Source: Craterostigma plantagineum
Taxonomy: Eukaryota; Streptophyta; Magnoliopsida; Lamiales; Linderniaceae
Direction of reading: 5' to 3'
Assembly: GCA_027422505.1 (NCBI GenBank)
Contig: JAPQWV010000002.1
Span: 22,638,001-22,702,000 of the forward strand
DNA: 64,000 nucleotides
The notes beneath the pieces are model-generated. The model was not told where the DNA came from. It saw only the letters and a program-made list of their open reading frames with translations, and did not search any database. The first letter of the stretch is position 1; every line of letters starts with the position of its first letter. Both the position numbers and the translations under genes were made by a program. Below are positions 21,258-49,772 of this stretch, piece by piece.

Positions 21258-21837
21258 TTTTCCTATAGGTGTCACTAAATTTAAAACATATTGTCATGAA
21301 CATATATATGATCATTTTATTCAACCAGAAAATAAATTAATATTTCATTTCTGATAATTTAATTAATTAAATATTTTTTCTCAAAGAAAATCATATTCTA
21401 TTTTACTTTTGATTTTATAGGTATTTAAAGTCATAATTTTCAATTTATGTATTCTTAAATTTTTTATTTGAGAATTTAGGTTTGTTGTTCCTTTTATAAG
21501 TTATTTCTAATTTAAACAATCTTCGACAATTTAATATATTAAGCAATAAAAAGTATTATATATAGAGGAAATAGTTGGAGTTTGATTACACTATTTAAAT
21601 ATGGAGAAATTATTCTTTTTCACCTGCATAAGTAGATGAATCATTTCATGGAGATGGTTGTTCAGCCTATGTGTTTTTGTTGTGTACATTAAAAAGCAAA
21701 GTTATTATCGGGAAAAAGAAAGTTAAAAACGCCTCCAGTTCATCATAAATGACGCTGTTAATTGCGAACAAATCAATAGGTTAGGGAGCAATTTGCAATA
21801 TACAGGCCTTAATGTCTTTTTCTCAGTGAAAGTATAT
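21258..21837. other. AT-rich stretch without recognised feature
   Basis: No coding potential, tandem repeat or terminal repeat seen. Confidence 0.5.
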
Positions 21838-23012: not shown

Positions 23013-23210
23013 ATTTTAGTTTCTTTTTCTCGATTGCTATTCACCGCCCCCTTTTTCCTAGTCACCGCCCCTAAAGGGCTGGAAAAAGACGATTTTGCCC
23101 TTATGATATTTAAATTAATTTAAAAAGAGAAAAGGGTCTATTTTCACGACTGCTAAGCCAAATTAACGTAAAACATTGTTCGAATTTCAACTCGACCGAA
23201 AGAAAAAAAA

Positions 23211-23462: not shown

Positions 23463-23469
23463 TTTTTTT

Positions 23470-23770: not shown

Positions 23771-23859
23771 CGAAACGGAATAAATATGCAAACAAATATT
23801 GAAAACATATATAAAATCCGTCCGATACAATAAAAGATAAAAAAAACAATAGCAACACG

Positions 23860-24535: not shown

Positions 24536-24540
24536 CTGTA

Positions 24541-24892: not shown

Positions 24893-25435
24893 TTTTTTTT
24901 TCTTTCGGTCGAGTTGAAATTCGAACAATGTTTTACGTTAATTTGGCTTACCAGTCGTGAAAATAGGCCCTTTCCCTTTCCTAGTCCCTGTCGGCGATCC
25001 ATTGCGATTTCAGTATTTTTTTTGTTTTTGTCTGATTTTCGATATGTGATTTGAAAAGTGTTGTCTGGAGAGAGCTTTAAATAGATATTTTTATTGTTTA
25101 TTATAATTTTCTCTTTTTAAATTAATTTAAAAATCATAAGGGCAAAATCGTCTTTTTCCAGCCCTTTAGGGGCGGTAACAAGTAAAAAGGGGCGGTAAAT
25201 AGTAATTCCCTTTTTTTTTCTGGTTTCGAGATGCTTACATATCTATTTTTGCTACCTACACATGAAGTCCGTTAAACGTCGCTCTCAAGTCAAAGTCCAC
25301 ATATAAGTTATTTCGGTTCTGCCGTTGCTGCTTCTCTCACATTACTGATGATCTTCTCCGCGAAATTCTAAAGAGACGATCGCAAGCTTTGATTTTTTTT
25401 TTTCTTCGGTTTTCTTTAATTAATTTTTTGTTGAA

Positions 25436-27801: not shown

Positions 27802-30800
27802 TTATTGTTACGGGTATCTACACATAAATACCGATTTGAATAAAAACTTACAGATCAGTACCTATGTCATAAATTTTTACAGATAGGTATCCGATTTAAT
27901 TTGTACCAGTCTCTTCAGTCATGTCGTACATTCCTGTGTGTGTAATGCGTATCATAACACGTTGATATCGGGTACCTAAATGTGTTTGTACAGCGTACCT
28001 AATGTGCTAATATGGCGTATCATTTTCTAAACGTATTACGTACCACAATACGTTGATATAGGGTACCCAAATGTGTTGTATGGCGTACCTGCGGCGGATC
28101 GGGTACCTATATGCAAAATATTTATCCAGTTAGGTACCTACATATTAAAACATGCTGACAGGGTACTAAATTACAAGTTTTTTACAGAAGGGGTATTCAT
28201 GTGTAAAGACCCATTTGAATAAAAACTTAGATCAGTACCTATGTCAGAATTTTTTAGAGATAGGTACCTGATTTAATTTGTACCACTCTTCAATCATGTC
28301 GTGCCTTCCTGTGTGTTGCGTACCATAACACGTTGATATAGAGTACCTAAATGTGCTTGTACGGCATACCTAATGTGTAAATAGGGCGTACCTAAATGTG
28401 TTAATACGGCGTACCATTTTCTAAACGTATTACGTACCACAATACGTTGATATAGGGTACCCAAATGTGTTGTATGGCGTACCTATGGCGGATCGAGTAC
28501 CTATCTGCAAAAACTTTATTCTGTTAGGTACTTACATATAACAAAATGCGGACAGGGTACTAAATTACAAGTTTTTTACAGAGTGGGTATTTATGTGTAA
28601 AGACCCCTTTGAATAAAAACTTATATATCAGTACCTTTGTCAGAAATTTTTACAGATAGGTACCCAATTTAAGTTGTACCAGTCTCTGCAGTCATGTGGT
28701 ACCTTCCTGTGTGTGTTGCGTACCATAACACGTTGATATAGGGTACCTAAATATGTTTGTACGGCGTACCTAATGTGTAAATAGGGCGTACCTAAATGTG
28801 CTAATACGGCGTACCATATTCAGTATCACGTACCATAATACGTTGATATTGGGTACCCAAATATGTTGTATGGCATACCTGTGGCGGAACGGGTACCTAT
28901 CTGCAAAAATTTATTCTCATATAAAAAAATACTGACAGGGTACTTAATTACAAGATTTTTTTTTACAGATGGGGTATTTACGTGTAAAGACCCCTTTGAA
29001 TAAAAACTTATAGATCAGTATCAATGTCAGAAATTTTTACAGATAGGTACGAGATTTAATTTGTATCAGCCTCTACAGTGTACCTGCGGCTGTCGGGTAC
29101 CTATCTGCAAAAAAATATTATGTTAGGTACCTACATATAAAAAAATGCTGATAGAGTACTATATTACAAGTTTTTTACAGAGGTGGTATTTGTGTGTAAA
29201 GACCCCTTTGAATAAAAACTATTGATCAGTACCTATGTCAGAAATATTTACAGATAGGTACCCGATTTAATTTATACAAGTCTCTACAGTCATGTCGTAC
29301 CTTTCTGTGCGAGTTGCGTACCATAACAAGTTGATATAGAGTACCTAAATGCGTTTGTACGGTATACCAAAAGTGTAAATAGGGCGTACCTAAATGTGCT
29401 AATACGGCGTACCATTTTCTAAACGTATTACGTACCACAATATGTTGATATAGGGTACCCAAATGTGTTGCATGGCGTACCTGCGGCGAATCAGGTACCT
29501 ATTGCAAAAAATTTGTTCTGTTAGGTACCTACATATAAAAAAGGCTGACAGAGTACTAAATTACAAGTTTTTTACAGATGGAGTATTTATGTGTAAAGAC
29601 CCCTTTGAACAAAAACTTATTGATAAGTACCTATGTTAGAAATTTTTACAGATAGGTACCCGATTTAATTTGTACTAGTCTCTACAGTCATGCCTAATGT
29701 GTTTATACGGCGTACCTAATGTGTAAATAGGGCGTACCTAAATGTGCTAGTACGGCGTACCACTTTCTAAACGTATTACGTACCACAATACGTTGATATA
29801 GGGTACCCAAATGTGTTGTATGGCGTACATCTGGCGGATCGGGTACCTATTTGCAAAATATTTATTATGTTAGGTGCCTTCATATAATAAAAGGCTGACA
29901 GAGTACTAAATTACAAGTTATTTACAGATGGGGTATTTATGTGTAAGACCGCTTTGAATAAAAATTTATAGATCAGTACCTATGTCAGAAATTTTTACAG
30001 ATAGGTACCTGATTTAATTTGTACCATTCTCTTCAGTCATGCCGTACCTTCCTGTGTGTGTTGCGTACCGTAACACGTTGATATAGGGTACCTAATTTTG
30101 TTTGTACCGCGTACCTAATTTATAAATAGGGCATATCTAAATGTGTTAATACGGCGTGCCATTTTCTAAACGTGTTACGTATCACAGTACGTTGATATAG
30201 GGTACCCAAATGTGTTTTATGGCTTATCGGCGGCGGATCGCGTACCTATCTGCAAAATATTTATCCTGTTAGGTACCTAAATATTTAAAAATGCTGACAT
30301 GGTACTAAATTACAAGATTTTTTACAGAGAGGGTGTTTATGTGTAAAACCCCTTTGAATAAAAACTTAAAGATCAATTCTTATGTCAGAAATTTTTGCAG
30401 ATTGCTACCTGATTTACTTCGTACCTTCCTGTGTGTGTATTGCGCACCATAAAACGTTGTATAGGGTACCAAAATGTGTTTGTACGGCGTACCTAATTAC
30501 TAAACAGGGCGTACCTAAATGTGCTAATACGACGTACCATTTCTTAAATGTATTACGTACCACAATACTTTGATATAGGGTACCCAAATGTGTTGTATGG
30601 CGTACCTGCGATGGATCGGGTACCTATCTGCATAACATATACTCTACTTATCGATCGGTACCTATGTCAGAAATTTTTACAGATAGGTACCCGATTTAAT
30701 TTGTACCAGTCTCTTCAGTCATGTCATACCTTGTTGTATGTATATTGCGTACCATTAAACATTAACATAGGGTATCTAAATGTGTTTGTACGACATACCT

Positions 30801-33800
30801 AATGTGTAAATAGGGCGTAACCACATGTGCTAATACGGTGTACCAATTTCTAAACGTATTACGTACGACTATAGGTTGATATAAGATACCCGAATGTGTT
30901 GTATGGCGTACCTGCGGCGGATCGGGTGGCTATTTGCAAAATATTTATCCTGTTAGGTACCTACATATAAAAAAGGCTGAGGCTGACAGAGTACTAAATT
31001 ACAAGTTTTTTGACAGATAGGGTATTTATGTGTAAAGACCCCTTTGAATAAAAATTTATAGATCAGTACCTATGTCAGAAATTTTTACAGATAGCTACCT
31101 GATTTAATTTGTACCATCCTCTTCAGTCATGCCGTACCTTCCTGTGTGTTGCGTACCATAACACATTGATATAGGGTAGCTAATTTCGTGTGGACGGCGT
31201 ACGTAATGTATAATTAGGGCATACCTAAATCTGCTAATACGGCGTGCCATTTTCTAAACGTGTTACGTACCACAATACGTTGATATAGGGTACCCAAATG
31301 TGTTGCATGTCGTACCTGCGGCGGATCGTGTACCTATCTGCAAAATATTTATCCCGTTAGGTACCTAAATACTGAAAAATGCTGACAGGGTAGTAAATTA
31401 CAAGTTTTGTACAAAGGGGGTATTTATGTGTAAAAAACCCCTTTGAGTAAAAACTTATAGATCAGTACTTATGTTAGAAATTTTTGCAGGTTGGTACCTG
31501 ATTTTATTTGTACCATTCTCGTCAGTAATACCGTACCTTCCTGTGTGTGTATTGCATACCATAAAACGTTGTATAGGGTTCCTTAATGTGTTTGTACGGC
31601 GTACCTAATGTGTAAACAGGGCGTACCTAAATGTGCTAATACGACGTACCATTTTTTAAATGTGTTACGTACCATAATACTTTGATATAGGGTACCCAAA
31701 TGTGTTGTATGGCGTACATGCGATGGATAGGGTACCTATCTGCAAAAAATATACTCTATTAGGTACCTACATATAAAAAATGCTGACAGGGTACTAAATT
31801 ACAAGTTTTTTGCAGAGGGGGTATTTATATGTAAAGAACCATTTGATTAAAACTTATCGATCAGTACCTATGTCATAAATATTTACAGATAGGTACCCGC
31901 TTTAATTTGTAGTCTCTTCAGTCATGTCGTACCTTGTTCTGTGCGAGTTGCGTACCATAACACGTTGATATAGAGTACCTAAATGCATTTGTCCGGCATA
32001 CCTAATGTGTAAATAGGGCGTACCTAAATGTGCTAATACAGCATACCATTTTCTAAACAAATTACGTACCACAATACGTTGATATAGGGTACCCGAATGT
32101 GTTGTATGGTGTACCTGCTGCGGATTGGGTGCCTATCTGCAAAAACTTTATTCTGTTAGGTACCTACATATAAAAAATGCTGACACGATACTACATTACA
32201 AGTTTTTTTACAGATGGGGTATTTATGTGTAAAGACCCCATAGAATTAAAACTTGTAGATCAGTACCTATGTTAGAAATTTTTACAGATAGGTACCCGAT
32301 TTAATTTGTACCAGTCTCTACAGTCATGCCTAATGTGTAAATGATCCTTTGAATAAAAACTTATATATCAGTACCTATTCAGAAAGTTTTACAGATAGGT
32401 ACCTGATTTAATTTGTTCCATTCTCTTCAGTCATGCCGTACCTTCCTCTGTGTGTTGCGTACCAAAACACGTTGATATATGGTACCTAATTGTGTTTGTA
32501 CGGCGTACCTAATGTGTAAATAGAGCATACCTAAATGTGCTAATATGGCATACCATTTTCTAAACATATTACGTACCACTATACGTTGATATAGGATACC
32601 CGAATGTATTGCGTACCTGCGGCGGATCGGGTACCTATCTACAAAAACTTTATCCTACCTAAGTATTAAAAAATCCTGATAGGGTACTAAATTACAAGTT
32701 TTTTTTTACAAATGGGGTATTTATGTGTAAAGACCCCTTTGAATAAAAACTTCTAGATCAGTACCTATGTCAGAAATTTTTACAAATAGGTACCTGATTT
32801 AATTTGTACAATTCTCTTTAGTGATATCGTACCTTCCTGTGTGTGTATTGCGTACCATAACACGTTGATATGGGTAGCTAAATGAGTTTGTACGGCGTAC
32901 CTAATGTGTAAATAGGGCGTACCTAAATGTGCTTATACGGCGTACTATATTCTAAACGTATTACTTACCACAATACGTTGATATAGGGTACCCAAATGTG
33001 TTGTACGGCGTACCTGCGCAGATCGGCCCGATCTGTAAATAATTTATAATGTTAGGAACCTACATTTAGAAAAATGTTGACATGGTACTAAATTATAAGT
33101 TTTTTTACATAAGGGGTATTTATGTGTAAAGACCCCATTGAACAAAAACTTATAGATCGGTACCTATGTCAGAAATTTTTACATATAGGTTCCCGATTTA
33201 ATTTATACCATTCTCTTCAGTCATGCCGTACCTTCCTCTATGTGTATTGCGTACCATAACACGTTGATATAGGGTACCTAAATGAGTTTGTATGGCGTAC
33301 CTAATGTGTAAATAGGGCTTACCTAAATGTGCTAAATTACAAGTTTTTTACAGAGGGGCACCCAAAACATTATCCTATTAGGTACCTACACATTAAAAAT
33401 ACTAACAGGGTACTAAATTACAAGTTTTTTTTACAGATGGGGTATTTATGTACAAAGACCCCTTTGAATAAAGACCCAAATGTGTTGTCTGGCGTACGTG
33501 CGGGGGATCGGATACCTATTTGCAAAAATGTATCCTGTTATGTACCTACATACAAAAAAAACGCTGACAGGGTACTAAATTACAAGTTTTTGGGAGTATT
33601 TAAGCGAAAAGACCCCTTTGAATAAAAATGTATAGATCAGTACCTATGTCAGGAATTTTTACAGATAGGTACCTGATTTAATTTGTACCAGTCTCTTCAG
33701 TCATGCCGTACCTTCCTGTATGAGCATCGCGTACCATAACACGTTGATATACGGTACCTATTTGTGTTTGTACGGCGTACCTAATGTGTAAATAGGGCGT

Positions 33801-36641
33801 ACCTAAATGTGTTAATACGACCATTTTCAAAACGTATTACGTATCACAATACGTTGATATAGGAACCCAAATGTGTTGTCTGGCGTACCTGCGGGGGATC
33901 GGGTACCTATCTGCAAAAATTTTATCCTGTTAGGTACCTACATGTAAAAAAAATGCTGACAGGGTACTAAATTAAAGGTTTTTACAGAGGGGTATTTATG
34001 TGAAATGACCCCAAATAAAACGTATAGATCGGTACCTTTGTCAGAAATTTTTACAGATAGGACCTGATTTAATTTGTACCAGTCTCTTCAATCATACCGT
34101 ACCTTCCTCTGTGTGTATTGCGGACCATAACACGTTGATATAGGGTAACTAAATGTGTTTGTACGGCGTACCTAATGTGTACATAGGGTGTACCTAAATG
34201 TGCTAATACGTCGTATCGAAAAGTATTACACACCACAATACGTTGATATACGGTACCCAAATGTGTTGTATGGCGTACCTGCGGCGGATCGGGTACCTAT
34301 CTGGAAACAATTTATCCTGTTACAAGGTACTAAATTACAAGTTTTCTTACGGAGGGGGTATTTATGTGAAAGACCCCTTTGAATAAAAATTTATAGATCA
34401 GTATCTATGTCAGAAATTTTTAAAGATAGGTGCCTAATTTAATTGGTACCATTCTCTTCAGTCATACAGAACCTTCTTGTGTGTGTATTGCGTACCATAA
34501 CACGTTAATATAGGGTATTTATTTGTAATGACCCCTTTGAATAAAAACTTATAGATCGGTACCTATGTAAGAAATTTTTACAGATAGGTACCCGATTTAA
34601 TTTGTACCAGTCTCTTCAGTCATGCCGTACCTTCCTGTGTGTGCATTGCGTACCATAACACGTTGATATAGGGTACCTAATTGTGTTTGTACGGCGTACC
34701 TAATGTGTAAATAGGGCGTAACAAAATGTGCTAATACGGCGTACCATTTTCAAAACGTATAACATACCACAATACATTGATATAGGGAACCCAAAGGTGT
34801 TGTATGGCGTATCTGCGGCGGATAGGATACCTATCTGCAAAAAATTTATCCTGTTAGGAACATACATATAAAACAATGCTGACAGGGTACTAAATTACAA
34901 TTTTTTTACAGAGGGGGTATTTATATGAAAAGACCCCTTTGAATAAAAACGTATAGATCGGTACCTATGTCAGAAATTTTTACAGATAGGTACCTGATTA
35001 ATTTGTACCATTCTCTTCAGTCATACCATACCTTCCTCTGTGTGTATTGCGTACCATAACACGTTGATATCGGGTACCTAAATGTGTTTGTACGGCGTAC
35101 CTAATGTGTAAATAGGGCGTACCTAAACGTGCTAATATGTCGTATGATTTCTAAACGTATTACGTACCACAATACGTTGATATATGATACCCAAATGTGT
35201 TTTATGGCGTGCGGCGGATCGGGAACCTATGTGCGAAACATTTATCCTGTTAGGTACCTACATATTAAAAAATGCTGACAAGGTACTAAATTACAAGTTT
35301 TTTCAGAGGGGATATTTATGTGTAAAGACCCTTTTGAAAAAAAACTTATAGATCAGTACCTATGTCAGAAATTTTTACAGATAGGTACCTGATTTAATTT
35401 GTACCATTCTCTTTAGTCATGTCGTACCTTCCTGTGTGTGCATTGGGTACCATAACACGTTGATATAGGGTACCTAATTGTGTTTGTACAGCGTACCAAT
35501 GTGTAAATTGGGCGTACCTAAATGTGCTAATACGGCGTACCATCTTCAAAACGTATTACATAACACAATACGTTGATCTAGGGTAATCAAATGTGTTGTA
35601 TGGCGTACCTGCGGCGGATCGGGTACCAATCTGCAAAAAATATATACTGTTAGGTACCTACATATAAAAAAATGCTAACAGGGTACTAAATTACAATTTT
35701 ATCAGAGGGGGAATATATGTGTAAAGACCACTTTGAATAAAAATTTATAGATCAGTACCTATGTCAGAAATTTTTACAGATTGGTAGCTGATTTAATTTT
35801 TATCATTCTCTTCAGTCATGCCGTACCTTCCTGTGTGTGTTGCGTACCATAACACGTTGATATAGGGTACCTAATTTTGTGTGTACGGCGTACGTAATGT
35901 GTAAATAGGGCGTAACTAATGTGCTAATATGGTGTACCATTTTCTAAACGTATTCCGTACCACTATACGTTGATATAGGATACCTGAATGTGTTGTATGG
36001 CGTACCTGCGGCGGATCGGGTGCCTATCAACAAAAAATTTTTCTGTTAGGTACCTACATATAAAAAAATGCTGACACTTTACTACATTACAAGTTTTTTT
36101 TACAGAGGGGGTATTTATGTGTAAAGACCACTTTGAATAAAAACTTAAGTATCAGTACATATGTCAGAAATTTTTTGCAGATAGGTACACGATTTAATTT
36201 GTACCAATCTCTTCCGTCATGTCGTACCTTCCTGTGTGTTGTGTACCATAACACGTTGATATAGGGTACCTAAATGAGTTTGTACGGCGTACCTAATGTG
36301 TAAATAGGGCGTACCTAAAGGCGTTAATATGGCGTACCATTTTCTAAACGTATTACGTTCCACAATACTTTGATATAGGGTACCCAAATGTGTTGTATGG
36401 CGTATCTGCGGTGGATCGGGTATCAATCTGCAAAAAATATATTCTGTTAGGTACCTACATATAAAAAAAATGCTGACAAAGTACTAAATTACAAGTTTTT
36501 TCACATAGGGGCTATTTATGTGTAAAGACCCCTTTGAATAAAAACTTATAGATCAATACCTATGTCAGAAATTTTTACAGATAGGTACCTGATTTAATTT
36601 GTACCATTCTCTTTAGTCATGCCGTACCTTCCTGTGTGTGC

Positions 36642-36646
36642 ATTGC
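36642..36646. other. Target-site duplication of the Copia element, left
   Basis: ATTGC, matching 46207-46211. Joining across it restores the normal satellite phrase ...TGTGTGCATTGCGTACCATAA. Confidence 0.9.
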
Positions 36647-36942
36647 TGTTAGGATATTTTAGTGATTGTGTCAATAGTTTAAGTCTTGGGATTAATATTG
36701 TAATTATCCTTTAACTTGGGCTTTGGACTAGTATGTAATTATTTAATTTTTGGTATTTGTGCCTTAATATACCTAGGGTTAATGTGGTATATAAGGTGTT
36801 ACCAACACCATTTGAAAGCGAATCAAAGATCAAAAGGCTAACCCTAGTTTTCACACACTACACACACTACAAGGTGAGAAATCTCCGTTTTCATTCCATC
36901 AAAGCCTCTTTGATTCCTTGTTTGGTGCATTCGGGACCAACA
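36647..36942 (+). mobile_element. 5' LTR of Copia element (296 bp)
   Basis: Starts TGTTAGGATA, ends CCAACA, and is repeated at 45911-46206 with about 8 differences by eye (about 97% identity). It includes a TATA-like ATATAAGG near 36790. Confidence 0.95.
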
Positions 36943-36944
36943 AG

Positions 36945-36956
36945 TGGTATCAGAGC
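36945..36956 (+). other. Copia primer-binding site, tRNA-iMet type
   Basis: TGGTATCAGAGC, two bases after the 5' LTR. Confidence 0.93.
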
Positions 36957-37424
36957 AAACGTGGATCGATTTGCATTGATTTGAGTCCAGTTTCGTTTGA
37001 TTCCAAGAAAGATCAAAGGTGTTTTTGAATAAAAAATCACTTTCGGGCATTTTGAGCTCGTTTTGGGGTGTTTATGCTTTGTTTTTGTGTTTAAAACCTT
37101 CACCCAGATCGATTCTATGCCTAAGATGTTTTTTAAAAAACTAGGGTTAGCCTTTTGGATCAGTTTTAACGAGTTTTGAGTAAGATTGAAGCAAAACTTT
37201 TCAGAAAAGGACATCTCGGCCATTCTCTGTTTTCGGTCGATTTGACCTATTTCTTGTTGTTTTTAGCTCACAAATCGGTCGATTATGTGTTTAGGAAAGA
37301 ATTTCTGAAGTTTAGGATCAAGTTTGAGCGATTTTGGTTGAGATTTGAGCAAGAACGGGACGATTTTCTGGGAAAACGCGTGAAAGCAATGGAACAGTAC
37401 TAACGTGTTCTTGACCGCGAAATT

Positions 37425-37822
37425 TTGTGCTTGATCGTTCAAGTCCGCGAATTTTCCATGTCCGCGAAAGTCGATCCCGAGAATCTTCAAAACCGCGAAA
37501 CTTTCACTTCTACTACATTTTTTCGCAACTGCCTACTTTAAGAATCCGAAAAATTTTAAACCGCGAAACTTTGATCTATACTACATTTTTCGCAACTGCC
37601 TACTTTCAAGATCCGAGAATTTTAAGCCGCGAAACTTTCACTTATACAGCATTTTTTTTCGCAACTGTTTACTTTCAAAATCCGAGAAACTTTCACCTGC
37701 GAAATTGGCTTACTTTTCATAATCCGAGAAATTCCATATCCAAGAAAGCTTATTCCAAGAATTTTTTTTGGCGGCGAAAATTTTCTCAACGTGCGAAATT
37801 TTTTAACTTGCGAAATTTTCTT
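37425..37822. repeat. Copia leader with ~65-bp repeats
   Basis: At least three diverged copies of a unit holding CCGCGAAACTTT, TATACTACATTTTTTCGCAACTG and CCGA.AA, then single GCGAAA words to the start of gag. The part 36957-37424 before it shows no feature. Confidence 0.75.
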
Positions 37823-39555
37823 GCGAACAAAGGCGCACCACTCTCTCAATACCTTCTGGACTCCATCTTCAACGGCCCAGCACAGTTCTGGACAATCATC
37901 CTTGCACAGCCAAACGCAAACCATCCCATGGATGAACGCCGCACTCCAAGAGGTCCCATCAATGAGGATGAAGAGGCTCGCGTACAGGCCGATGAGACTG
38001 CCAAATGATATCTCTTCCAGGCTATGGGAAATGAGGTTTACGCTCATATTGAGTGCTGCACAACTGCTAAGGAAATATGGGATGAGCTCGTGGAAATCAT
38101 GGCAGGCACAATTGAGAGTGCTCAAGGAAGGAAATCAGCATGTCTTTCGCAGTATGAACACTTCCAGGCCTATGAAGGAGAGGAACTGCGTGACACATAC
38201 CTCCGATACTTGAAGGTCATCAATGAACTCAAGAAAGCCAGGATCTCGAGGGACAAATTCGATATCAACAATTGCTTCCTTGGTAGCCTCAAACCACATT
38301 GGGGCAATGCAATCGTAATGATGATTCAGAGTAAGGACCTCTCCAACACTTCCATCCATGCTCTTATGACAGTCTGTCTGCCTATGCTCCTTAAGTGCAA
38401 AATTCCGCCAACACTCGAGTCGACCCACTGGCCCTCCTCTCGAACAAAACCAATGAACGATCTTCCACCACCAAGACCAAACTGAACAAAGGGAAGCTAC
38501 CAGCTGTTGTATCGGGCACTCCTTCAGGATCCGAAGCTGACACAGAATCTGATGAAGATGTTCGCGATTTACGCAAAGAACTGGAAATGCTCACTAAGAT
38601 GGTCTCAAAGAAGCTCGGGAAAAAATCCTCATCCTCCTCCAATCGCCAAAGAACCTTTAGCGGCACCAAAAAGACCACTCCCACGGAGGAAGCTAAGCCG
38701 ACAAAGAAAGAAGAGGAATCAGCACCTCAAAAGTCTGTGAAGTGCTTTCGATGTGGGAAGTCAGGCCACTTTGCCAAAGAATGCCTTGCCCCACGCGTAA
38801 AGGACTCTGGCTACTATGACCGTAAGGCCAGATTGACCCGCAAAATGGAAAGTGGGAAAGCTCTACTCACCGAAGAAGCTGAATGGGTGAACGACACATC
38901 AGAAGACGAGGAGCCTAAGGATGAAGATTGCTGCATGGCAAGGCTGGTCGAACAGGACGAGGACGAGGAGATGGGTAACACCGATAAGAACACAGCTGAG
39001 ACTCCTACCAACGCTGAGTCTGAGGTACGAATCTCACAACTCGATAATGTGTTTAATCACCGACACACCATCAACAAACCCACCGTAGATGCTCAGGATT
39101 ATAATGAACTTAAGCTAAAATTTGAAAACAACTATGCCTTACTTAGTCTAAAAGTAGAAGAGCTTGCCTGTGCAAACGAACGACTAATGGCCTCTGAAGC
39201 GTTAGTCAAACGTTTGCAAAGCAAGAATGAACAAAGTGAGACTAAGGTTAAGGAAACCACACTAGCCATCAGTTCATGTGAATCTTCTCGCCTCCTGACG
39301 GCCTCCCAATATGAACTGCTTACGAAGGAAAGAGTTAGGCTATACCGCAAGGTGAAAGAACTTGAAGAGCAACTTCACCTTAGAAAAAAGGCCGCACACA
39401 TCTTATGCCTATTGAACCAACCAGTTGAAACAGAATTCTACGACGCCCGGATGGGAATCGCCCTGGCCAGCAACTGCGATCCAACGCCGCTAATTGTCAA
39501 AAGGTATAACATGTACAGTACATCATTCCTGAAAACGAGGAAGGGGACTCCCTGA
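37823..39555 (+). pseudogene. Copia gag with zinc knuckle and coiled coil, interrupted
   Basis: Capsid protein of the element. The core with CTTAKEIWDELVEIM and a LRDTYLRYLKVINELKKA block (38024-38370) is the UBN2-type gag of plant Copia elements. A TGA at 38006-38008 interrupts the N-terminal part, and a frame change near 38380 separates the core from the rest. The second frame (38395-39555) has a Ser/Glu-rich linker, a CCHC knuckle (CFRCGKSGHFAKEC, about 38743-38784), an acidic stretch, and a long heptad-rich region (about 39080-39410) that should form a coiled coil. Protease, integrase and reverse transcriptase are absent: the sequence passes straight into RNase H after a short junction repeat at 39551-39577. 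Confidence 0.82.
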
Positions 39556-39577
39556 CAGCTCATCCCTGACAGCTCAT
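39551..39577. repeat. 13-bp direct repeat at the gag/RNase H deletion joint
   Basis: CCTGACAGCTCAT occurs at 39551-39563 and 39565-39577. The repeat marks where about 3 kb of pol has been lost compared with a full Copia element. Confidence 0.8.
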
Positions 39578-39582
39578 GCCGT

Positions 39583-40071
39583 TTGGAAGGGGACTTCAAA
39601 CTGGTTGGATTCTCTGACTCGGATTATGCAGGATGCAAGATGGACCGAAAAAGCACCTCTGGAGCTGCACACTTCTTGGGCGGTAAACTCGTAAGTTGGT
39701 CGTCTCGAAAACAAAACTGTGTCTCAACTTCGTCGACGGAGGCAGAATATGTCGCCGCCGCTAGTTGCTGTTCACAGCTTTTGTGGATGAGAACCCAACT
39801 ACGAGATTTTAATATTCATGTTGATAAAATTCCCATTTATTGTGACTCAAAAAGTGCTATTGCAATGACGAGTAATCCGGTACATCACTCGAGAACGAAA
39901 CACATAGATATTCGTCACCACTTCATCAAAGAACATGTCGAACAAGGGACAATTGAATTGCACTACGTCACAACCGAAGATCAACTGGCCGACATTTTCA
40001 CAAAACCGTTGGATGTCAAACGATTCCAACACCTAGTGACTATGTTGGGCATGTTGAATATTCAGTTGTGA
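39583..40071 (+). pseudogene. Copia RNase H domain, orphan
   Basis: About 160 residues ending in TGA at about 40069-40071. All family landmarks are present and intact: GFSDSDYAGC (first catalytic Asp), RKSTSGAAHFLGG, STEAEYVAAA (Glu), YCDSKSAIAM (Asp), RTKHIDIRHHFIKEHV and DQLADIFTKPL. It belongs to the C-terminal end of a Copia Pol but has no RT in front of it and no ATG of its own. It could be expressed only as a fusion or not at all. Confidence 0.88.
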
Positions 40072-42160
40072 TCAATCGTCCCTACATGAACTTTGATTAA
40101 GTGTACATATTTCCTTTCCACTTCACTCCATTGTCTATGTGTCTTCTGAATTATGTCTTTTGAGGGGGAGTTTTCGATTAAGGGGGAGCGTCTGATTTTT
40201 CTATTATTTTTAAAGTAAAGTTTTCGATTAAGGGGGAGCTTCTGATTTTTCCATTACTTAAAAAGGAGAGCTTTAGATTAAGAGGGAGTTTCTGATTATG
40301 CCTATATAAAAATAAAATTTTGTGTTGAAATTCTAAAGTTTGGTCAAATTGAGTCAAAATTGGACTGATTAAAATGTTTTGGGTTGAATTTTAAAATTTC
40401 TGATCAAAAAGGGTCAAAATTGGACCAATTGAGCTTCAATTGGACCCAATTTTGACCAAGCCCGCGAAAATCATATCTGGACCCAGCTTTGACCAAGCCC
40501 ATGAATTTCGGCCCATTTACACAAAATTTCGCATGAACAGTGACTAAAACCCCAAAACCCTTAACGTTATTCACTATCCTAAAATTCCCGAGAAAATTCA
40601 AAACTTTCCCAACCCCTCTCTCAAAAATTTCGCAACTCCCCGCATCGCGTCGTCGTCAAAATCTGCTTTCAAAATCCGTTTCTTGCTACTTCCATTGTCG
40701 CAAATCAGCTTCTCGGTACGAATACAGCTCAGATAAATCAATTTCCAGTCACTTTAAGCTGTTTTGCCCCGTTTCGATTAAATCTGTTAGGTTAGAATAA
40801 ATTTTTCGCGGCCTCTGAATCGAACTCATGATATGTTATTAATGTTTAATATCCCCAAATATGCATTGCCCATTCAATTACGAGTCGATTAAGCCCAGAT
40901 TATAGCATTTTGGTTGAGATTTGAGTAGGTCTAAGGCTAAAATCATTGCGTCGTTTCGCATGCTTTCGCACTGTGTTCTTCACCGCGAAAATTCTCAAGA
41001 AAAAAAATTGCTTTAAAACGTTAATTTTCGCTGCTACAGTGAGGACAGTTCCGCGAAAATTTTTCCGAGAAATTTCTTACGTTGAAAGTTTCGCTACTAC
41101 AGTGAGTGAGGTTCCGCGAAATTTTATCCGAGAAATTTCCAGCGCTAAAATTTTCGCTGCTACAGTGACTAAGGAAATGCGAAACTTTCATTCGAGAATT
41201 TACATGAGTTAAAATTTTTTTTTTTCGCTGCTACAGTATGTGAAGTACCGCGAAAGTTTATCTGAGAATTTTTTTTATTCACGACAAAACTTTCTCTGCT
41301 ACAGTTAGTGTCACCCCGCGAAAATCTCATAACACATCACTTCATACTACATACTTTCGCATCTTCACTCTTTCGCAACCACAGTGAAACACGAAAATTT
41401 TCTCAATGCATAAAGCTTTTTTCCTTCCGCGAAACTTTCATATAACTTGCGAAAATTTACCTTACATGCAAAAATTCACTCTGAATGCGAAAACACTTCA
41501 ACTTGCGAAAATTTCATTATATGCGAAAATTTTGGACAACTTGCGAGATTTCTTAACTTGCGAAAATTTTCCATACTCGCGAAATTTTACTCACTGTGCG
41601 AAAATTTCTCATGACATGTCTATGTGCAATCACTTGCGAAAATTTCCTAATGCATGCGAAAATTTTCCTATCTGCGAAATTTACCTAATATGCGAAAAGT
41701 AACATTACTTGCGAAAATTTTCTCTATCACTTAGCGAATTTTCATTACATGCGAACCTTTACACAATATGCGAAAATTTTCCACTACTTGCAAACATTTC
41801 CCACTACATGCGAAATTCTCCACTGAATGCGAAATTTTCTTTACTTGTGACAATTCTCCTTAGATACGAAATTTTTTACTACATGCGAAAATTGTCTTCA
41901 ATTTAAAAATTTTCTAAGTGCTGAGAAATTTCTCATTGCATGCGAAAATTTTGACTTCTTGCGAAAATTTTCCATGCCCACGAAATTTTATATGCGAAAA
42001 CTTTCTCAACATGTCTATATGCGATAAGTTACGAAAAATTTCTCATTACATGCGAAATTTTACACAAAAATGCGAAAGTTTGCTTGACATATCTACGTTT
42101 TATACTTCGCGAATTCGCTACTTAGTCCGTACTAATCATATTACAATTACTGTCGAGCAC
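40072..42160. repeat. Copia spacer with repeated polypurine tracts and GCGAAAATTT words
   Basis: 40150-40290 holds four AAGGGGGAG-like purine tracts each within TTCGATTAAGGGGGAG.TTCTGATT repeats. From 40980 to 42110 the word GCGAAAATTT recurs, first in ~60-bp units with CGCTGCTACAGTGA (41030-41290), then every 17-20 bp in a long run (41430-42080). Open frames in this stretch are repeat-driven. Confidence 0.82.
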
Positions 42161-42164
42161 AGAT

Positions 42165-45100
42165 ATGACCAACAAAGATCAAAGTACACTTGAAGCGCTT
42201 GAGGCGGCCGCAATCCAAAGGGACGTCGCTCGCATCGAACTCACCACGCGTACCTATGTCCCACCACCTGAGGAGATCTTCCCACTAAGTCAATGGGCGG
42301 CCCTGATTCCCAACAACTACATGGTGGATTTGGAGAGCTTTCGATGCGATGCCCCCGTCATTGTAGAAATCCTCAAAGGGCATCCACTTCGCCACGCCCT
42401 CACACATGGCGAGCCAGAAGCACAAGTATATCTTCAACAATTCTGGCATACGCTGCAGATAGCTGGACCACTCCATCTTGCCCAAACCTTATCAGCCAGA
42501 ATTGATCAAGACACGGTGGTCCTCATTCGCAAGATAGTACAAGAAGTACTACAACTACCCGTCTACTCACCCTACGACCCACTACCGACGCACGAACAAC
42601 TCGTTGAAGACAATGACAGACTGGGCTACCAACCAGATAACAAGAAAAAGAAGGGCCCACTTGTCCTCAGTGAAGTCACCACCCGCAATCTACCTCAACC
42701 ATGGCGAACACTGTACCTTCTAGTGAACAAGTGCATGTCAGGGAAGCATGCTGGTCAAGACCGCGGCAATTTTCAAATTCTCACCATCCTGACCGGCATC
42801 GCCCACAACCGCAAGTACAACTACGCCGACATAATCTGGATGGATCTCGTCTCCATGATCCAACGTCGCGACCGGGAAGTCGCCAAGGGAGTCACAAACC
42901 GATTCGTACCTTACATGCGGTGGCTCCCTGCTCTCATCAAGCATTTCCGCTTGCACTCAACCACCATTCGCATCCGAGGCAGCGGAACACTTCATCATCC
43001 CAACTGTCGAGAAGTTCGCCAAGAAAAACACTCCGGCGAAGGATCGACACGCCATGATCATTCCGGACGAAGTGCTCGCCTACGCAGACCAGACAAATCC
43101 GCACGTCCGCGAATATCGAGCCACAACCGCCACGTTCCGCGAAAGCCCCCGACCTCTATCCACTGTCCCTACGGCGCAGATCAACCCCACTGCTCCTAGC
43201 CCCGGGACTAGCCAAAAACCCACCACCACCTCCAAAAAGTCATCGAGTCACGCCGCATCCTCTTCCACCCGCGTTCCGAAAAAACGGTCGCGTGAGGATG
43301 ACGTACGCCGTCCCATGGAGCGTCGATCGAAACAAAAATACGATCAACCTCCTCAGCCACAAATAAGCCGAGCCGAACCAATAGGTACAGGAGGTGATGT
43401 GTTCACCTCCCGAGTCGAAGACGTGGCATCTGGCTCAACCACGCAAACGACCCCACCAACCCACTTATCTTCCTCTCTACAGGAAGGTATTTCATTCCAC
43501 GAGGAGCCACGTATACCATCGACATCCCACTTGGAGATGATCGATGTTGAATCAAGCAGTCCCTCGCCTCAGACTGCATCCTCTTCATGCACATCGAATC
43601 TAGTGCCCTCACTCCCCATAGTTTCATGCGTCTCTAGGACACATACATCTCCTACCGCACCACAGAGTCTTCGTGACTCTGTCAGAACGCTCGGTGATGT
43701 CTCTGTGACTGAGAGCGGAAGACCTAGCACGGCCAACATCACAACAACCGTGAGTCTAGGCCATCATTCGAGTAAGTCTGTCTCATCGATGATGCCAACG
43801 GGAAGTCTGAGTGACCCCGTCTTTTCCAGACCTGTGCAAACGGGCGGCCAATCGGCTTTATTCACCGATTCGGTGTCAGTTGGATTTCTTCGTGATTCCA
43901 ACTTGTTAGATTTACCCCAATTCATCACCGAGACCGCGCTAAAGACACGTCTTCAAGAGTTTGCAAAGACTCTTGAGGCGTCGATTCTCGATAAAGTCTA
44001 TGCGCGTCTCGATGCGTCCACCGTCGACAAAGGCAAAGGTGTGGCCCCGGAGACGCCACCACCCATGCAACACACGGACGCAGACGTTCTCCTCCATCTC
44101 CACCAAGGAGCTCTTCTACATCCTCCGAGCCCGATTCGAATCGATGACGGAACTTGACGAGGAAGAACAGCAGATGAGGCGAATAATGACTCAACCGATG
44201 TCCTGCCGTGCTCAAGGCGAATCTAGCAGGATCAGGCGCGACGATCAAGACGATGATCAAGATCGCCGCGAGGGGGAGAATAGGCAGCAGGGCTCACAAC
44301 CAAGGACTCATGCAATCGACGCCGCCCTCCTCCTCTGGACCTGAAACGACGCCTGCACCTGAAACCTCACAACCCACTAGCCAAAAATCCCACCTTGTTC
44401 ACCCTGAGCCACTAGCCAAATCACCCTCACCACCACCCACTACCGTCTCCAAAACTCTAATCGTCACAACGACGTTAGAGACCACCTCAACATCGCTCCA
44501 CCCACAACCTCGGAACCTCTAGCTGTCACATCGACGTTAGAGGCCATCACCACATCTACACCACCCGTCACCCAAATCATCCTTGCCAAAACCATCACCT
44601 CAACCGAACCACCAGATCTCCACCAATTCCATCCCCACAATCCACAAACTCCTCCGACGCTACACCCTCGCCACCACATAGCCATACCCCTCTCAACATC
44701 GATTCCAACCTAGCTTCCGAGGATGTCTACTGCGCATAGAACGAGATCGAAGCCTACATCTTCAACGATGAATTGCTATACACGCCCGCCGATGCAGTAG
44801 CAGCTAGGAAGTTGGTGGAAAATGCTCGACGTCTGCTCATGGAGGCCTCGCTTACGCTGATCAACACCGCAGACGACGAGAACAGAGAGGAATACGACGC
44901 TGAACCGGCCGAGCTCGAGAACATCCTACAATTCCAAGCGCAGCAAACTGATGTACCCACGGTGAATATACCGGAAGCACCGTGGGAAAACAAAAAGATA
45001 ACCGCGCCGTTTCAAGAAGAGATCAGGAAGAGGATCTGGCGGCGCAAGGAGCAGATCATCACAACCTTCGACGAGTATGAGCTGATGAACATCCAAAATT

Positions 45101-45852
45101 GGAGCGAGCAATAGAAGAAGCTCTATCGATGGAGCCTTCTTTGCAACAAGTGCACAAAGAGGACGCTATCCGATGAGGAAAACATCGCTCAAGAAATGAG
45201 TCGGGCCCCCATCTGCAAAGTCACTGACCTCCGCCAAGAGTCGAAAGGACCTGTCCACTACCCAGTCTTCACAGTAATGAGGCAGGATGAGAGCTACAGT
45301 GAAGTCAGTGAGGCGGACTTCAAGTTTCTACGCCTGGGTGACCTATACAGCATGCTGGAATCCATGAAACAGTTCAGACTCGTCCTCAGAAGCTCTGGAC
45401 ATCTCGTACGTGCTGAACCGGTCACCATGGGATATGTGGCTCTCAACCGCCACGTGCTCCGACAGGTCAGATTCTTCGCCACCCACGATCTGCAGATGGC
45501 GGTGGAACACAACCTGAAGAAGGTGAATTTGACTCGCCCATCTTTCAAGAACACGGACGACTACCGAGAAGGCGATGTGATCGACGGAGATGATCTGGCG
45601 GTCGCCTACTCGAACTACAAGGGAAAGATGAGGCTGCTGCGCTGCTCCGAAGTGGCAAAGTTCTCGGATGGGACACTCACCATCATCCAAGACAAACTAA
45701 TGAAGATTTGCCGCATCCTTTCGGAAGAAGATCCTCTCTGCCGATCCAAGTTCGCGAAGCTCATTGACGCTATAGCTGATCGAATGGTACTTCGAAGGAA
45801 TCTCCGCGCCTTCGAGTTCAAGCTAGGGCTTCGCGAAACACTCACACGCTAA
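42165..45852 (+). pseudogene. Large extra 3' ORF of the Copia element, broken into frames
   Basis: Lies between pol and the 3' LTR, the position of env-like ORFs in Sirevirus-type elements. The first part (42165 to about 42985) is globular: WAALIPNNYMVD, FWHTLQIAGP, a WRTLYLLVNKCMSGK block. It shifts frame near 42985 into a Pro/Ser/Thr-rich middle (to 44157), then low-complexity pieces. A second globular part (44773-45114 and 45196-45852) contains PVFTVMRQD..Y.EV.EADFKFL.L.DLYSM and YREGDVI...KFSDGTL..I.DKLM. I recognise the two blocks from non-autonomous LTR elements of asterid plants, but no function is known. Stops occur at 44155-44157 and 45112-45114. I see no convincing transmembrane segment, so an envelope role is not supported. 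Confidence 0.65.
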
Positions 45853-45898
45853 TCCACCATCCCAACGTCCAAGATTCAAGACTCCCAACAATTGACAC

Positions 45899-45910
45899 AA
45901 AGGGGGAGAT
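45899..45910 (+). other. Copia polypurine tract
   Basis: AAAGGGGGAGAT directly before the 3' LTR. Confidence 0.9.
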
Positions 45911-46206
45911 TGTTAGGATATTTTAGTGATTGTGTCAATAGTTTAAGTCTTGGGATTAATATTGTAATTATCCTTTAACTTGGGCTTTGGACTAGTATGT
46001 AATTATTTAATTTTTGGTGTTTGGGCCTTAATATACCTAGGGTTAATGTGGTATATAAGGTGTTACCAACACCATTTGAAAGCGAATCAAAGATCACAAG
46101 GCTAACCCTAGTTTTCACACAATTCACACACTACAAGGTGAGAAATCTCCCTTTTCATTCCATCAAAGCCTCTTTGATTCCTTGTTTGGTGCATTCAGAA
46201 CCAACA
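45911..46206 (+). mobile_element. 3' LTR of Copia element (296 bp)
   Basis: Same length as the 5' LTR, with about 8 differences. Ends CCAACA, followed by the TSD ATTGC at 46207-46211 and by the continuation of the interrupted satellite unit. Confidence 0.95.
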
Positions 46207-49200
46207 ATTGCGTATCATAACACGTTGATATAGGGTACCTAATTGTGTTTGTACGGCGTACCAATGTGTAAATTGGGCGTACCTAAATGTGCTAATACGG
46301 CGTACCATCTTCAAAACGTATTACGTACCACAATACGTTGATATAGGGTAACCAAAGGTGTTGTATGGCGTACCTGCGGCGGATCGGGTACCAATCTGCA
46401 AAAATATATTCTGTTAGGTACCTACATATAAAAAAAAATGCTAACAGGGACTAAATTACAAGTTTATTTACAGAGGGGGAATATATGTGTAAAGATCACT
46501 TTGAATAAAAATTTATAGATCAGTACCTATGTCAGAAATTTTTACAGATTGGTAGCTGATTTAATTTTTACCATTCTCTTCAGTCATGGCGTAGCTTGCT
46601 GTGTATGTTGCGCACCATAACACATTGATATAGGTTGTGTGTACGGCGTACGTAATGTGTAAATAGGGCGTAACTAAATGTGCTAATACGGTGTACCATT
46701 TTCTAAACGTATTACGTACCACTATACGTTGATATAGGATACCCGAATGTGTTGTATGGCGTACCTGCGGCGGATCAGGTGCCTATCTGCAAAACATTTA
46801 TTCTGTTATGTGTAAAGACCACTTTGAATAAAAACTTAAGGATCAGTACCTATGTCAGAAATTTTTGCAGATAGGTACCCAATTTAATTTGTATCAGTCT
46901 CTTCAGTCATATCGTACCTTCCTGTCTGTTGCGTACCATAACACGTTGATATAGGGTACCTCGGCATACCTAATGTGTAAATAGGGCGTACCAAAAGGTG
47001 TTAATATGGCGTACCATTTTCTACGTATTACGTTCCACAATACTTTGATATCGGGTACCCAAATGTGTTGTATGGCGTATCTGCGGTGGATCGAGTACCA
47101 ATCTGCAAAAAATATATTCTGTTAGGTACCTACATATAAAAAAAATGCTGACAAAGTACTAAATTAGAAGTTTTTTCACAGAGGGGGTATTTATGTGAAA
47201 AGACCCCTTTGATTAAAAACTTATCGATCAGTACCTATGTCAGAAATATTTACAGATAGGTACCCGATTTAATTAGTACCGGTCTCTTCAGTCATGTCGT
47301 ACCTTCTTCTGTGTGTATTGCGTACAATAAAACATTGATATAAGGTACCTAAATATTTTTGTACGACGTACCTAATGGGTAAATAGGGCGTACCTAAATG
47401 TGTTAATACGGCGTACCATTTTCAAAGCGTATTACGTACTACAATACGTTGATATAAGGTACCCAAATGTGTTGTATGGTGTACCTGCGACGGATCGGGT
47501 ATCTATCTGCAAAAACTTTTCCCTGTTAGGTACCTACATATTTAAAATGCTGACAAGGTACTAAATTACAACTTTTTTTACAGAGGGGTATTTATGTGTA
47601 AATACCCCTTTGAATAAAAACATATAGATCAGTACCTATGACAGAAAGTTTTACAGATAGGTACCTGGTTTAATTTGTACCATTCTCTTCAGTGATGCCG
47701 TACCTTCCTGTGTGTGTTGCGTACCATAACACGTTATAGGGTATCTAAATGTGTTTGTGCGGCGTATCTAATGTGTAAATAGGGCGTGTCTAAATGTGAA
47801 AATACGGCGTAGCATTTTCGAAATGTATTACGTACCACAATACCTTAATGTAGGGTACCCAAATGTGTTGTATGGCATACCTGCGGTGGATCGGGTGCCT
47901 ATCTGCAAAACATTTATTCTGTTAGATACCTACATATAACAAATGCTGAAAGGTTACTAAATTACAAGTTTTTTTACAGAGGGGGTATTTATGTGTAAAG
48001 ACCCCTTTGAATAAAACTTATAGATCAGTACCTACGTCTGTAATTATTGCAGATAGGTACCCGATTTAATTTATACCGGTCTCTTCAGTCATGTCGTACC
48101 TTCATGTGTGTGTTGCGTACCGTAACACGTTGATATAGGGTACCTAAATGAGTTTGTACGGCGTACCTAATGTGTAAATAGGGCGTACCTAAATGTACTA
48201 ATACGGCCTACCATTTTCTAAACGTATTACGTACCTTAATACGTTGATACAGGGTACCCAAATGTGTTGTATAGCGTACCTGCGCGGATTGGGTACCTAC
48301 CTGCAAAAAAATTATTCTGTTAGGTACCTACATATAAAAAAATGCTGACATGGTGCTAAGTTACAAGTGTTTTTACAGAGAGGATATTTATGTGTACAAA
48401 CCCCTTTGAATAAAAACTTATCGATCAGTACCTATGTCAGAAATTCTTACAGATAGGTACCCGATTTAATTTGTACCACACAGTCATGACGTATCTTCCT
48501 GTGTGTCTATTGCGTATCATAACGCATTGATATAGGGTACCAAGTGTGTTTGTACGGCGTACCTAATGTTTAAATAGGGTGTACCTGAATGTGCTAATAC
48601 GGCCTACCATTTTTTAAACGTATTACGTATCACAATACGTTGATATAGGGTACCAAAATATGTTGTATGGCGTACCTGCGGCGGATCGGGTATCTATCTG
48701 CAAACATTTATTCTGTTAGGTACCTACATATAAAAAATTGCTAACAGTGTACTAAATTACAAGTTTTTTACAGAGGGGTATTTATGTGTAAAGATCCCTT
48801 TGAATAAAAATATAGATCAGTACCTATGTCAGAAATTGTTACAGATAGGTATCCGATTAATTTGTACCAGTCTCTTCATTCATGCCGTACGTTTCTCTGT
48901 GTGTTGCATCCCATAACACGTTGATATAGAGTACCTAAATGTGTTTGTACGGCGTACCTAATATGTAAATAGGGCGTACCTAAATGTGCTAATACGGCGT
49001 ACCATTTTCTAAACGTAATACGTACCACAATACGTTGATATATTGTACCCAAATGTGTTGTATGGCGTACCTGCGACGGATCGGGTACCTATCTGCAAAA
49101 GTTTGATTCTGTTAGGTACCTACATATAAAAAAATGCTGACAGGGTACTAAATTACAAGTTTGTTTCAAAGGGGTATTTCTGTGTAAAGACCCTTTTGAA

Positions 49201-49598
49201 TTAAAACTTATAGATTAGTACCTATGTCAGAAAGTTTTACAGATTTGTACCCAATTTAATTTGTAGCAGTCTGTTCAGTCATGCTGTACCTTCCTGTGTG
49301 TGTATTGCATACCATAACACGTTGATATAGGGTAGCTAAATGTGTTTGTACGACGTACCTAATGTGCAATTAGGGCGTACCTAAATGTGCTGATACAGCA
49401 TGCCATTTTTGAAACGTATTACGTACCACAATACGTTGATATAGGGTATTTAAATGTGTTGTATGGCGTACCTGCGGCGGATCGTGTACCTATCTGTAAA
49501 AAATTTATTCTGTTAGGTACCTACATATAAAAAAATGCTGATAGACTACTAAATTACAAGTTTTTTAGAGAGGGAATGTGTAAAGACCCTTTATTGTT

Positions 49599-49772
49599 GT
49601 TTGGGAATAAATCATATCCCAATAAATGTTATCGTAATTTTCGTACCCCAATTTAGTTAGAACCAAGTTTCGAGAGGGATTAATCTCTTATGTACTGCCT
49701 CAAGTTACAAGTTGGAAGCGAATTTTAAACCTCATTTCGATATCGACTATAGTATGACTAATCCCGTACGCA
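49599..49772. other. Spacer between satellite element and hAT MITE
   Basis: Unique-looking sequence, no feature. Its last 8 bases (CGTACGCA, 49765-49772) are the left TSD of the hAT MITE. Confidence 0.6.

What the first reader, a model, noticed from the sequence alone, without database searches (positions are those of the whole stretch)
27802..49598. A 21.8-kb satellite array that is bounded like a single transposon
About 33 head-to-tail ~395-bp units end at both sides on an identical 8-bp duplication, TTATTGTT, and on inverted terminal sequences (GGGTATCTACACAT and GGGTCTTTACACAT). The same terminus marks every internal joint. So the whole array looks like one TIR element whose interior amplified into a satellite, or a TIR element that inserted itself as a multimer. 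Satellites seldom show a TSD, and this gives a direct route from transposon to satellite. I do not recognise the unit from any described family.
Basis: partly seen in the sequence, partly recalled or inferred. Interest (0 to 1): 0.85.

Follow-up and report, generated by a model that had tools for sequence, protein, structure and literature searches.

The report
Satellite array grown inside one transposon
In a plant chromosome, one small jumping-gene insertion has grown into a run of 34 tandem copies that is still framed by the element's own ends and target-site duplication, so the step from transposon to satellite DNA can be read almost directly, against an uninterrupted version of the site elsewhere in the genome.

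Summary
The array is 12.2 kb, not 21.8 kb: 34 units (consensus 401 bp), interrupted by a 9.56-kb LTR retrotransposon (36647-46206). The unit is a 427-bp MITE whose left end has 421 matches in this 1.71-Gb genome; 54 of 55 fetched family loci show no tandem neighbour. The family makes 9-bp target duplications. The array's outer ends are the family's ends, flanked by TTATTGTTA and TTATTGTTG. A duplicate locus on contig C3 carries the same array (about 61 units) between perfect TTATTGTTA copies. Contig C25 has the empty site with one copy (TTACTGTTA). The tandem joint (complete right end fused to a left end lacking 24 bp) was found only at C2 and C3; of the 33 window units after unit 1, 32 can be scored and none keeps the single-copy base beside it, so it probably arose once. 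Units diverge like a star, with no neighbour effect, at C2; C3 is also flat. A 219-bp array in the same window behaves oppositely. Best reading: one Mutator-like MITE insertion formed one tandem junction, amplified quickly in place, then largely stopped homogenising. Transposon-to-satellite conversion is known; this is an unusually complete case.

The parts
27802..27810 (.). Left target-site duplication TTATTGTTA (9 bp)
   Evidence: the family TSD is 9 bp in single copies; the C3 duplicate has TTATTGTTA on both sides
27811..27832 (+). Left terminal inverted repeat CGGGTATCTACACATAAATACC, identical to the left end of the single-copy consensus
27833..28212 (+). Unit 1: keeps the single-copy base (ACTTACAG) next to the left end; of the 33 later units 29 have T there, 3 have A, 1 has a gap
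   Evidence: the C3 duplicate's first unit also keeps it
28213..36646 (+). Units 2-25 and the start of unit 26 of the tandem array (consensus 401 bp), joined with consensus GACCCC|TTTGAAT
36647..46206 (+). Later insertion: LTR retrotransposon (LTRs 36647-36942 and 45911-46206) with TSD ATTGC at 36642-36646 and 46207-46211; not found in the C3 stretch
46207..49571 (+). Remainder of unit 26 and units 27-34
49572..49590 (-). Right terminal inverted repeat (GGGAATGTGTAAAGACCCT); the C3 duplicate's right end lacks similar inner bases
49591..49599 (.). Right target-site duplication TTATTGTTG (one transition from TTATTGTTA)
20118..21260 (-). Old diverged single copy of the same family, right end missing, split by a TE-like insertion of about 0.8 kb

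Best explanation
A single non-autonomous, Mutator-like TIR element (MITE, 427 bp) inserted at TTATTGTTA. There one tandem junction formed, in which the complete right terminus was fused to a left end that had lost its first 24 bp. The copy lying behind that junction was then amplified to tens of units within a short time. Afterwards the units mostly accumulated point mutations, with some later block duplications (a 3-unit block in C2, more of them and more widely spaced in C3). The locus was later duplicated (C2/C3), and each array was hit by its own large insertion. Shown: one TE insertion with TSD and empty site; one joint type found only at this locus pair; star-like unit divergence at C2. 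Inferred: that amplification took place after insertion, and the replication or recombination process behind the burst.
For: Family ends and 9-bp TSD: first set 8 of 30 loci exact and 10 of 30 with at most 1 mismatch at the fixed boundary, against 7 of 870 mismatched flank pairs; counting each insertion site once it is 8 and 10 of 28. Second set, 15 of 20 loci with both ends: 7 of 15 exact and 11 of 15 with at most 1 mismatch allowing 1-bp slip, control 4 of 210; of its 10 sites that are new and distinct, 3 are exact and 6 have at most 1 mismatch with slip. Array-unit consensus matches the single-copy consensus (28 copies) except for the missing left 24 bp and four other small differences. C3 duplicate: same array, same ends, exact TSD. 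Empty site on C25 aligned through the join, 91% identity over 289 ungapped bases. Joint pattern with up to 3 mismatches: 71 hits = 23 on C2, 47 on C3, 1 on C780 that is a single copy's right end, against 421 left-end hits. Marker base: C in unit 1, in none of the 32 other scorable window units. Star: adjacent identity 0.874 against 0.873 overall among 25 full units, permutation P 0.29; internal branches 8.6% of tree length, against 36.5% in the 219-bp array (10 units), which has adjacent 0.926 against 0.883. C3 array also flat (0.866 against 0.869, 59 units), and between-locus identity (0.868) equals within-locus identity (0.870, 0.869). Timing fits: flank divergence to C25 13.4% on average, C2-C3 4.5% (985 sites).
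Against: Only one locus (two copies) shows it, so how regular it is cannot be judged. Unit pairs differ by about 13%, as much as the flanks differ from the empty site (13.4%), so insertion after the C25 split needs faster mutation in the array; likely orthologous units do differ more (about 6-8%) than flanks (4.5%). A star tree shows that the units' ancestors are close in time, not that the burst followed insertion. The spectrum of shared changes fits a star only if mutation rates vary among sites. Exchange did not stop wholly: 22 unit pairs in C3 are at least 94% alike, 12 of them 2-6 units apart and 10 of them 8-27 apart; no tree was built for C3. One C3 unit of 59 has the single-copy base at the marker. 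In C25 a few bases just right of the target differ and there are gaps in both flanks, so a precise later loss there cannot be excluded. No transposase with these ends was sought.
Confidence: 0.75

Rival explanations
1. The element integrated already as a multimer: a concatemer (for example from rolling-circle copying of an excised circle) was inserted in one event by the transposase acting on the outermost termini.
For: Outer ends and TSD cover the whole array; star-like units fit a one-shot concatemer; array founder is close to the family consensus, so amplification and family activity overlap.
Against: The internal joint lacks the left TIR, so a concatemer of the joint-bearing unit would not supply the single left TIR with its single-copy neighbour base at the array's left edge. 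No other locus carries the joint in the pattern search, and no right-end-to-left-end joint with 0-14 bp between was found (exact pattern, limited sensitivity).
Confidence: 0.18
2. Repeated independent insertions of the MITE into its own ends or TSD built the array (double-insertion route).
For: Two same-orientation copies 32 bp apart occur at C12, the downstream one with its own TSD.
Against: Internal joints have no TSD and share one trimmed junction and a linked base change; joints with 0-14 bp between right and left ends: 0 in the genome by exact pattern.
Confidence: 0.02
3. Ordinary satellite array maintained by continuing unequal exchange; the TSD and TIR match at its edges is coincidence.
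For: Block duplications occurred, in C2 at 3-unit spacing and in C3 at spacings from 2 to 27 units; the TSD is T-rich and 8-mer matches arise by chance at about 1e-3 with sliding edges.
Against: Exact TSD in the duplicate, single copies with the same ends, and an empty site; no decay of similarity with distance and no elevated divergence at the edges.
Confidence: 0.01

Closest known systems
Tetris / TIR-220 satellite, Drosophila virilis (PMC4079207; passages read, abstract in part)
   Same: Non-autonomous TIR element with 8-10 bp TSDs whose repeats expanded into satellite arrays; [quoted passage not shown]
   Different: There a 220-bp subrepeat inside long foldback TIRs expanded. Here the unit is the whole short MITE minus one TIR, and the array keeps both outer ends, a TSD and an empty site.
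MITE-derived tandem repeats of Xenopus (miDNA4, Xstir), as described in review PMC12628747 (passages read; original papers not seen)
   Same: MITE as source of a satellite; arrays inside or beside the MITE.
   Different: There an internal or captured repeat is amplified; here the joint is the element's own right end.
Tandem transposon dimers and the expanded hobo array of Drosophila (McGurk and Barbash 2018; paper not held, known here from passages of reviews PMC12628747 and PMC7214746)
   Same: A DNA transposon present as a head-to-tail run.
   Different: Routes proposed there include double insertion at a TSD and concatemer insertion; here joints carry no TSD and one TIR.
Tandem LTR-retrotransposon structures in rice (PMC11899658; passages read)
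   Same: One TSD frames a multi-unit element; a genome without the insertion is known.
   Different: Class I elements; the examples in the passages seen have few units, not a 34-61 unit DNA-transposon array.
SaTar non-autonomous MULE multimers of guayule and rice (PMC5907723; passages read)
   Same: Small non-autonomous MULEs, several families about 400 bp, in arrays.
   Different: SaTar arrays mix unrelated families at microsatellites; here one unit is repeated.

Membership tests
MITE (short non-autonomous TIR element) | Short element with terminal inverted repeats at both ends | tested here: met
   427-bp consensus, ends CGGGTATCTACACATAAATACC and GGTATTTATGTGTAAAGACCCC
MITE (short non-autonomous TIR element) | Many dispersed copies with target-site duplications | tested here: met
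   421 left-end matches at up to 3 mismatches; 9-bp TSDs
Mutator-like (MULE) superfamily | TSD of about 9 bp (8-11 according to a passage of PMC5907723) | tested here: met
   Exact matches at 9 bp in 8 of 30 loci and at 10 bp in 0 of 30
Mutator-like (MULE) superfamily | Mobilised by a MULE transposase from an autonomous partner with the same TIR | not tested
   No search for a transposase gene with these ends was made
hAT superfamily | TSD of 8 bp (recalled) | tested here: not met
   Family TSD is 9 bp
Satellite DNA | Long head-to-tail array of one unit | tested here: met
   34 units at C2, about 61 at C3
Satellite DNA | Continuing homogenisation, neighbours or same-locus units more alike (recalled) | tested here: not met
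   No adjacency effect, within-locus identity equals between-locus identity; some block duplications did occur
Satellite DNA | Arrays at several chromosomal places (recalled) | tested here: not met
   Joint found only at the C2/C3 locus pair in a pattern search with up to 3 mismatches
Foldback element (Tetris-like) | Long TIRs containing the repeats | tested here: not met
   TIRs are about 22 bp and the repeat is the element body

The most novel reading that the evidence does not exclude
A rolling-circle-type concatemer of a MITE, many units long, was made and integrated by the transposase in a single transposition, so that a ready-made satellite array of 10 kb or more with TIRs and TSD can be a transposition product in itself.
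Probability: 0.18. Interest if true: 0.8.

Novelty: new variant of a known kind. Interest (0 to 1): 0.6.

Why it matters
Reviews list many satellites that resemble transposons, but the steps in between are usually reconstructed by inference. Here the source element, its single copies, the target site without it, the one founding junction, the expanded array and a second evolved copy of it can all be compared in one genome. It makes two questions testable: whether tandem amplification of a transposon is a sudden event or gradual unequal exchange, and what stops it. This array points to a rapid burst followed by near-loss of homogenisation, at one insertion among hundreds.

Tried and rejected
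The 8-bp TSD (hAT-like, recalled) and a 3-bp TTA TSD (PIF/Harbinger-like, recalled) were both considered from the array alone, because left and right ends differ by one base at the border; single copies settled it at 9 bp.

The diverged copy at 20118-21260 was examined as a single-unit relative but lacks its right end, so it gave no TSD. That the host is a plant is inferred (plant mobile domain).

Four further places with homology to the left flank (C162, C149, C250, C2316) were tested as empty sites. None aligns convincingly across the insertion point (the alignments of C162 and C250 were looked at base by base, those of C149 and C2316 only as scores); only C25 does.

Edge decay expected under unequal exchange was tested and not seen; divergence is if anything lower at the edges (Spearman 0.41 with distance from the edge, P 0.016). 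A pure star with equal site rates over-predicts singletons; with gamma rate variation (shape 1) it fits to about one to one and a half standard deviations. Papers: none of 8 searches listed a title or abstract start describing a whole DNA-transposon array framed by TSD with an empty site; that is a statement about those listings only. An earlier count gave the joint hits as 24 and 46; the answer, recounted, is 23 on C2, 47 on C3 and 1 on C780.
Full report
What is there. Reading the window and cutting the array at its joints gives 34 head-to-tail units with consensus 401 bp (12,196 bp in all; 25 units of 360-420 bp, the others truncated or interrupted). They lie at 27833-36646 and 46207-49589. 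The 9,560 bases between are an LTR retrotransposon with 296-bp LTRs (8 mismatches) and the 5-bp duplication ATTGC. It is not found in the C3 stretch, so it probably came later.

Ends. The left edge reads TTATTGTTA | CGGGTATCTACACATAAATACC and the right edge ...ATGTGTAAAGACCCT | TTATTGTTG. The left terminus is an inverted copy of the right terminus and of the internal joints; the exact + strand match is at 27812, 29 of the other 30 matches are on the - strand, and the one exception (33380) has 2 mismatches. A match of 9 bases with at most one mismatch between two random window places has frequency 2.7e-4 (3.0e-3 for T-rich 9-mers).

The family. The genome of the window (1.71 Gb, 6262 contigs, unnamed) answered; only 39 of its 3669 candidates were scored. 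I fetched 35 places with single-unit hits and 20 more chosen only by a perfect left end. They define a 427-bp element with 22-bp TIRs (consensus from 28 copies after dropping five with shared flanks and two without a left end). In the first set 30 loci passed the end filter and a duplicate filter; one search shows that this filter missed two pairs (L010/L011, L024/L029). 8 of 30 have exact 9-bp TSDs at the fixed boundary, 10 of 30 at most one mismatch, 15 of 30 at most one mismatch with up to 2-bp slip at each end; flanks of different loci give 7 of 870. With the two repeats dropped, 8 and 10 of 28. In the second set, 15 of 20 had both ends: 7 of 15 exact, 11 of 15 at most one mismatch with 1-bp slip, control 4 of 210. 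One search shows that two pairs there share flanks (L072/L080, L073/L077) and that three loci repeat sites of the first set (L064, L065, L082); among the 10 remaining new sites 3 are exact, and 6 have at most one mismatch with slip. No 10-bp exact TSD was seen in 30. A TSD of 9 bp points to a Mutator-like element; no transposase was sought, so this is by structure only. The left-end pattern has 421 matches at up to 3 mismatches, the array's own among them. Of 55 fetched family loci (45 distinct sites), 54 show no tandem neighbour within 120 bp; the exception, L074, is two separate same-orientation insertions 32 bp apart. L018 has further pieces in the opposite orientation nearby.

The array is one insertion of that element. 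Its outer ends are the family's ends. The array-unit consensus aligns to the single-copy consensus with the first 24 bases missing and four other small differences (two substitutions, two 1-bp indels). A second copy of the locus lies on contig C3 at about 6.231-6.264 Mb, inverted. It has matching flanks on both sides (divergence 4.5% over 985 sites), the same array of about 61 units, its own 10.2-kb insertion with 964-bp direct repeats, and the TSD perfect: TTATTGTTA | CGGGTATC ... GACGCC | TTATTGTTA. The final G in the window is thus a later change. C2 and C3 may be homeologs or divergent haplotypes; I could not tell. The left flank has further relatives (7 places in all); the unique part of the right flank has only C2 and C3 at that sensitivity. 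On C25 the alignment runs through the insertion point, with TTACTGTTA once and no element (91% identity over 289 ungapped bases around the point, with some gaps in both flanks and a few differing bases just right of the target; flank divergence 13.4% on a broader set): an empty site. The four other places do not align convincingly across the point.

One founding joint. The joint consensus is GACCCC | TTTGAAT: a complete right end followed by a left end that has lost its TIR. 12 joints in the window read exactly so; the rest carry point changes or small deletions. At the base where single copies mostly have C (ACTTACAG), unit 1 has C, and of the 33 later window units 29 have T, 3 have A and 1 has a gap. 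C3's first unit also has C, and 1 of its 59 other units reads TACAGAT. A few single copies have T as well (at least 2 of those listed), so the base alone is not unique to the array. The joint pattern at up to 3 mismatches is found 71 times: 23 on C2, 47 on C3, and once on C780, which is a single copy's right end. So the junction most likely arose once and, as far as these searches show, no unit of the array has moved elsewhere. Head-to-tail right-left joints with 0-14 bp between were not found (exact pattern, so incomplete).

Burst and freeze. In the window, adjacent units are no more alike than distant ones (0.874 against 0.873 among 25 full units; permutation P 0.29), each is about 7% from the consensus, and 8.6% of tree length is internal. 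The 219-bp array at 51.9-54.2 kb in the same window (10 units) behaves as expected under local exchange: adjacent 0.926 against 0.883, P 0.0005, internal 36.5%. The C3 array is equally flat (0.866 against 0.869), and units are as similar between loci (0.868) as within (0.870, 0.869). Exceptions are block duplications: one clear block of 3 units in C2 (0.947-0.962 at spacing 3; two fainter ones), and in C3 22 pairs at 0.94 or more, 12 of them 2-6 units apart and 10 of them 8-27 units apart. So exchange within the array continued to some extent, more in C3. Some units look orthologous between loci (U49194 and U47207 share 11 and 13 derived bases with their C3 partners), so the arrays had already begun to diverge before the loci separated. 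In flank-equivalent terms (orthologous units change about 1.5 times as fast as flanks) the order is: C25 split 13.4%, burst about 8-9%, C2/C3 split 4.5%. This conversion is mine and approximate.

Mechanism. Shown: one TE insertion, one joint type, rapid common origin of units, later drift. Inferred: that amplification followed insertion. The reason is that only the leftmost unit has the left TIR and its original neighbour base, while the others descend from the junction; a concatemer of joint-bearing units would have no left TIR to offer. The junction could come from microhomology: the TSD begins with TT and the retained left body with TTT. The burst could be rolling-circle-like or replication-based template switching; nothing here decides between these. 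Changes at C and G sites are about twice as frequent as at A and T, as expected of methylated repeats, which may explain the near-arrest.

Comparison. Conversion of DNA transposons to satellites is known: Tetris (PMC4079207, passages), Xenopus MITEs and hobo dimers (through reviews PMC12628747 and PMC7214746, passages), tandem LTR elements framed by TSD with empty sites (PMC11899658, passages), mixed MULE arrays (PMC5907723, passages). I rate this a new variant: the entire element apart from one TIR is the unit, and the grown array of 34-61 units still sits between the element's own ends and TSD with its empty site identifiable.

Noticed in passing
51863-54215: A 219-bp tandem array (10.8 copies) with clear similarity decay by distance; no match to it in the C3 stretch. 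Used here as a control.
   Followed up: partly
23033-25206: Foldback-like element: inverted 13-bp and 32-bp minisatellite arrays around an ORF with a plant mobile domain (PF10536); the flanking stretches lie almost next to each other in the C3 duplicate, so it looks like an insertion.
   Followed up: partly
734-1402 and 5221-8643: An ORF matching the caulimovirus coat domain (PF22909), and a stretch present twice at 72% identity (5221-6241 and 7627-8643) overlapping a reverse-transcriptase match; possibly an endogenous pararetrovirus or retroelement. Only observed.
   Followed up: no
20296-21121 (- strand): hAT-like (by eye) insertion of about 0.8 kb with GTTTATA on both sides inside an old copy of the MITE.
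   Followed up: no
L028 + L049 (C3:6231992-6242195): The C3 array is interrupted by a 10.2-kb stretch with 964-bp direct repeats (91% alike), a different insertion from the one in the window's array.
   Followed up: partly
27833-49589, unit consensus: The unit holds 20 GTACC/GGTAC motifs (2000 shuffles average 0.56, maximum 5), mostly in one direction; perhaps protein-binding sites. The 219-bp and 210-bp repeats at 51-54 kb show a similar GTA rhythm by eye.
   Followed up: partly
L074 (C12:10569236-10570336): Two same-orientation copies of the MITE 32 bp apart, the downstream one with its own TSD TATTTCTTT: independent neighbouring insertions.
   Followed up: partly
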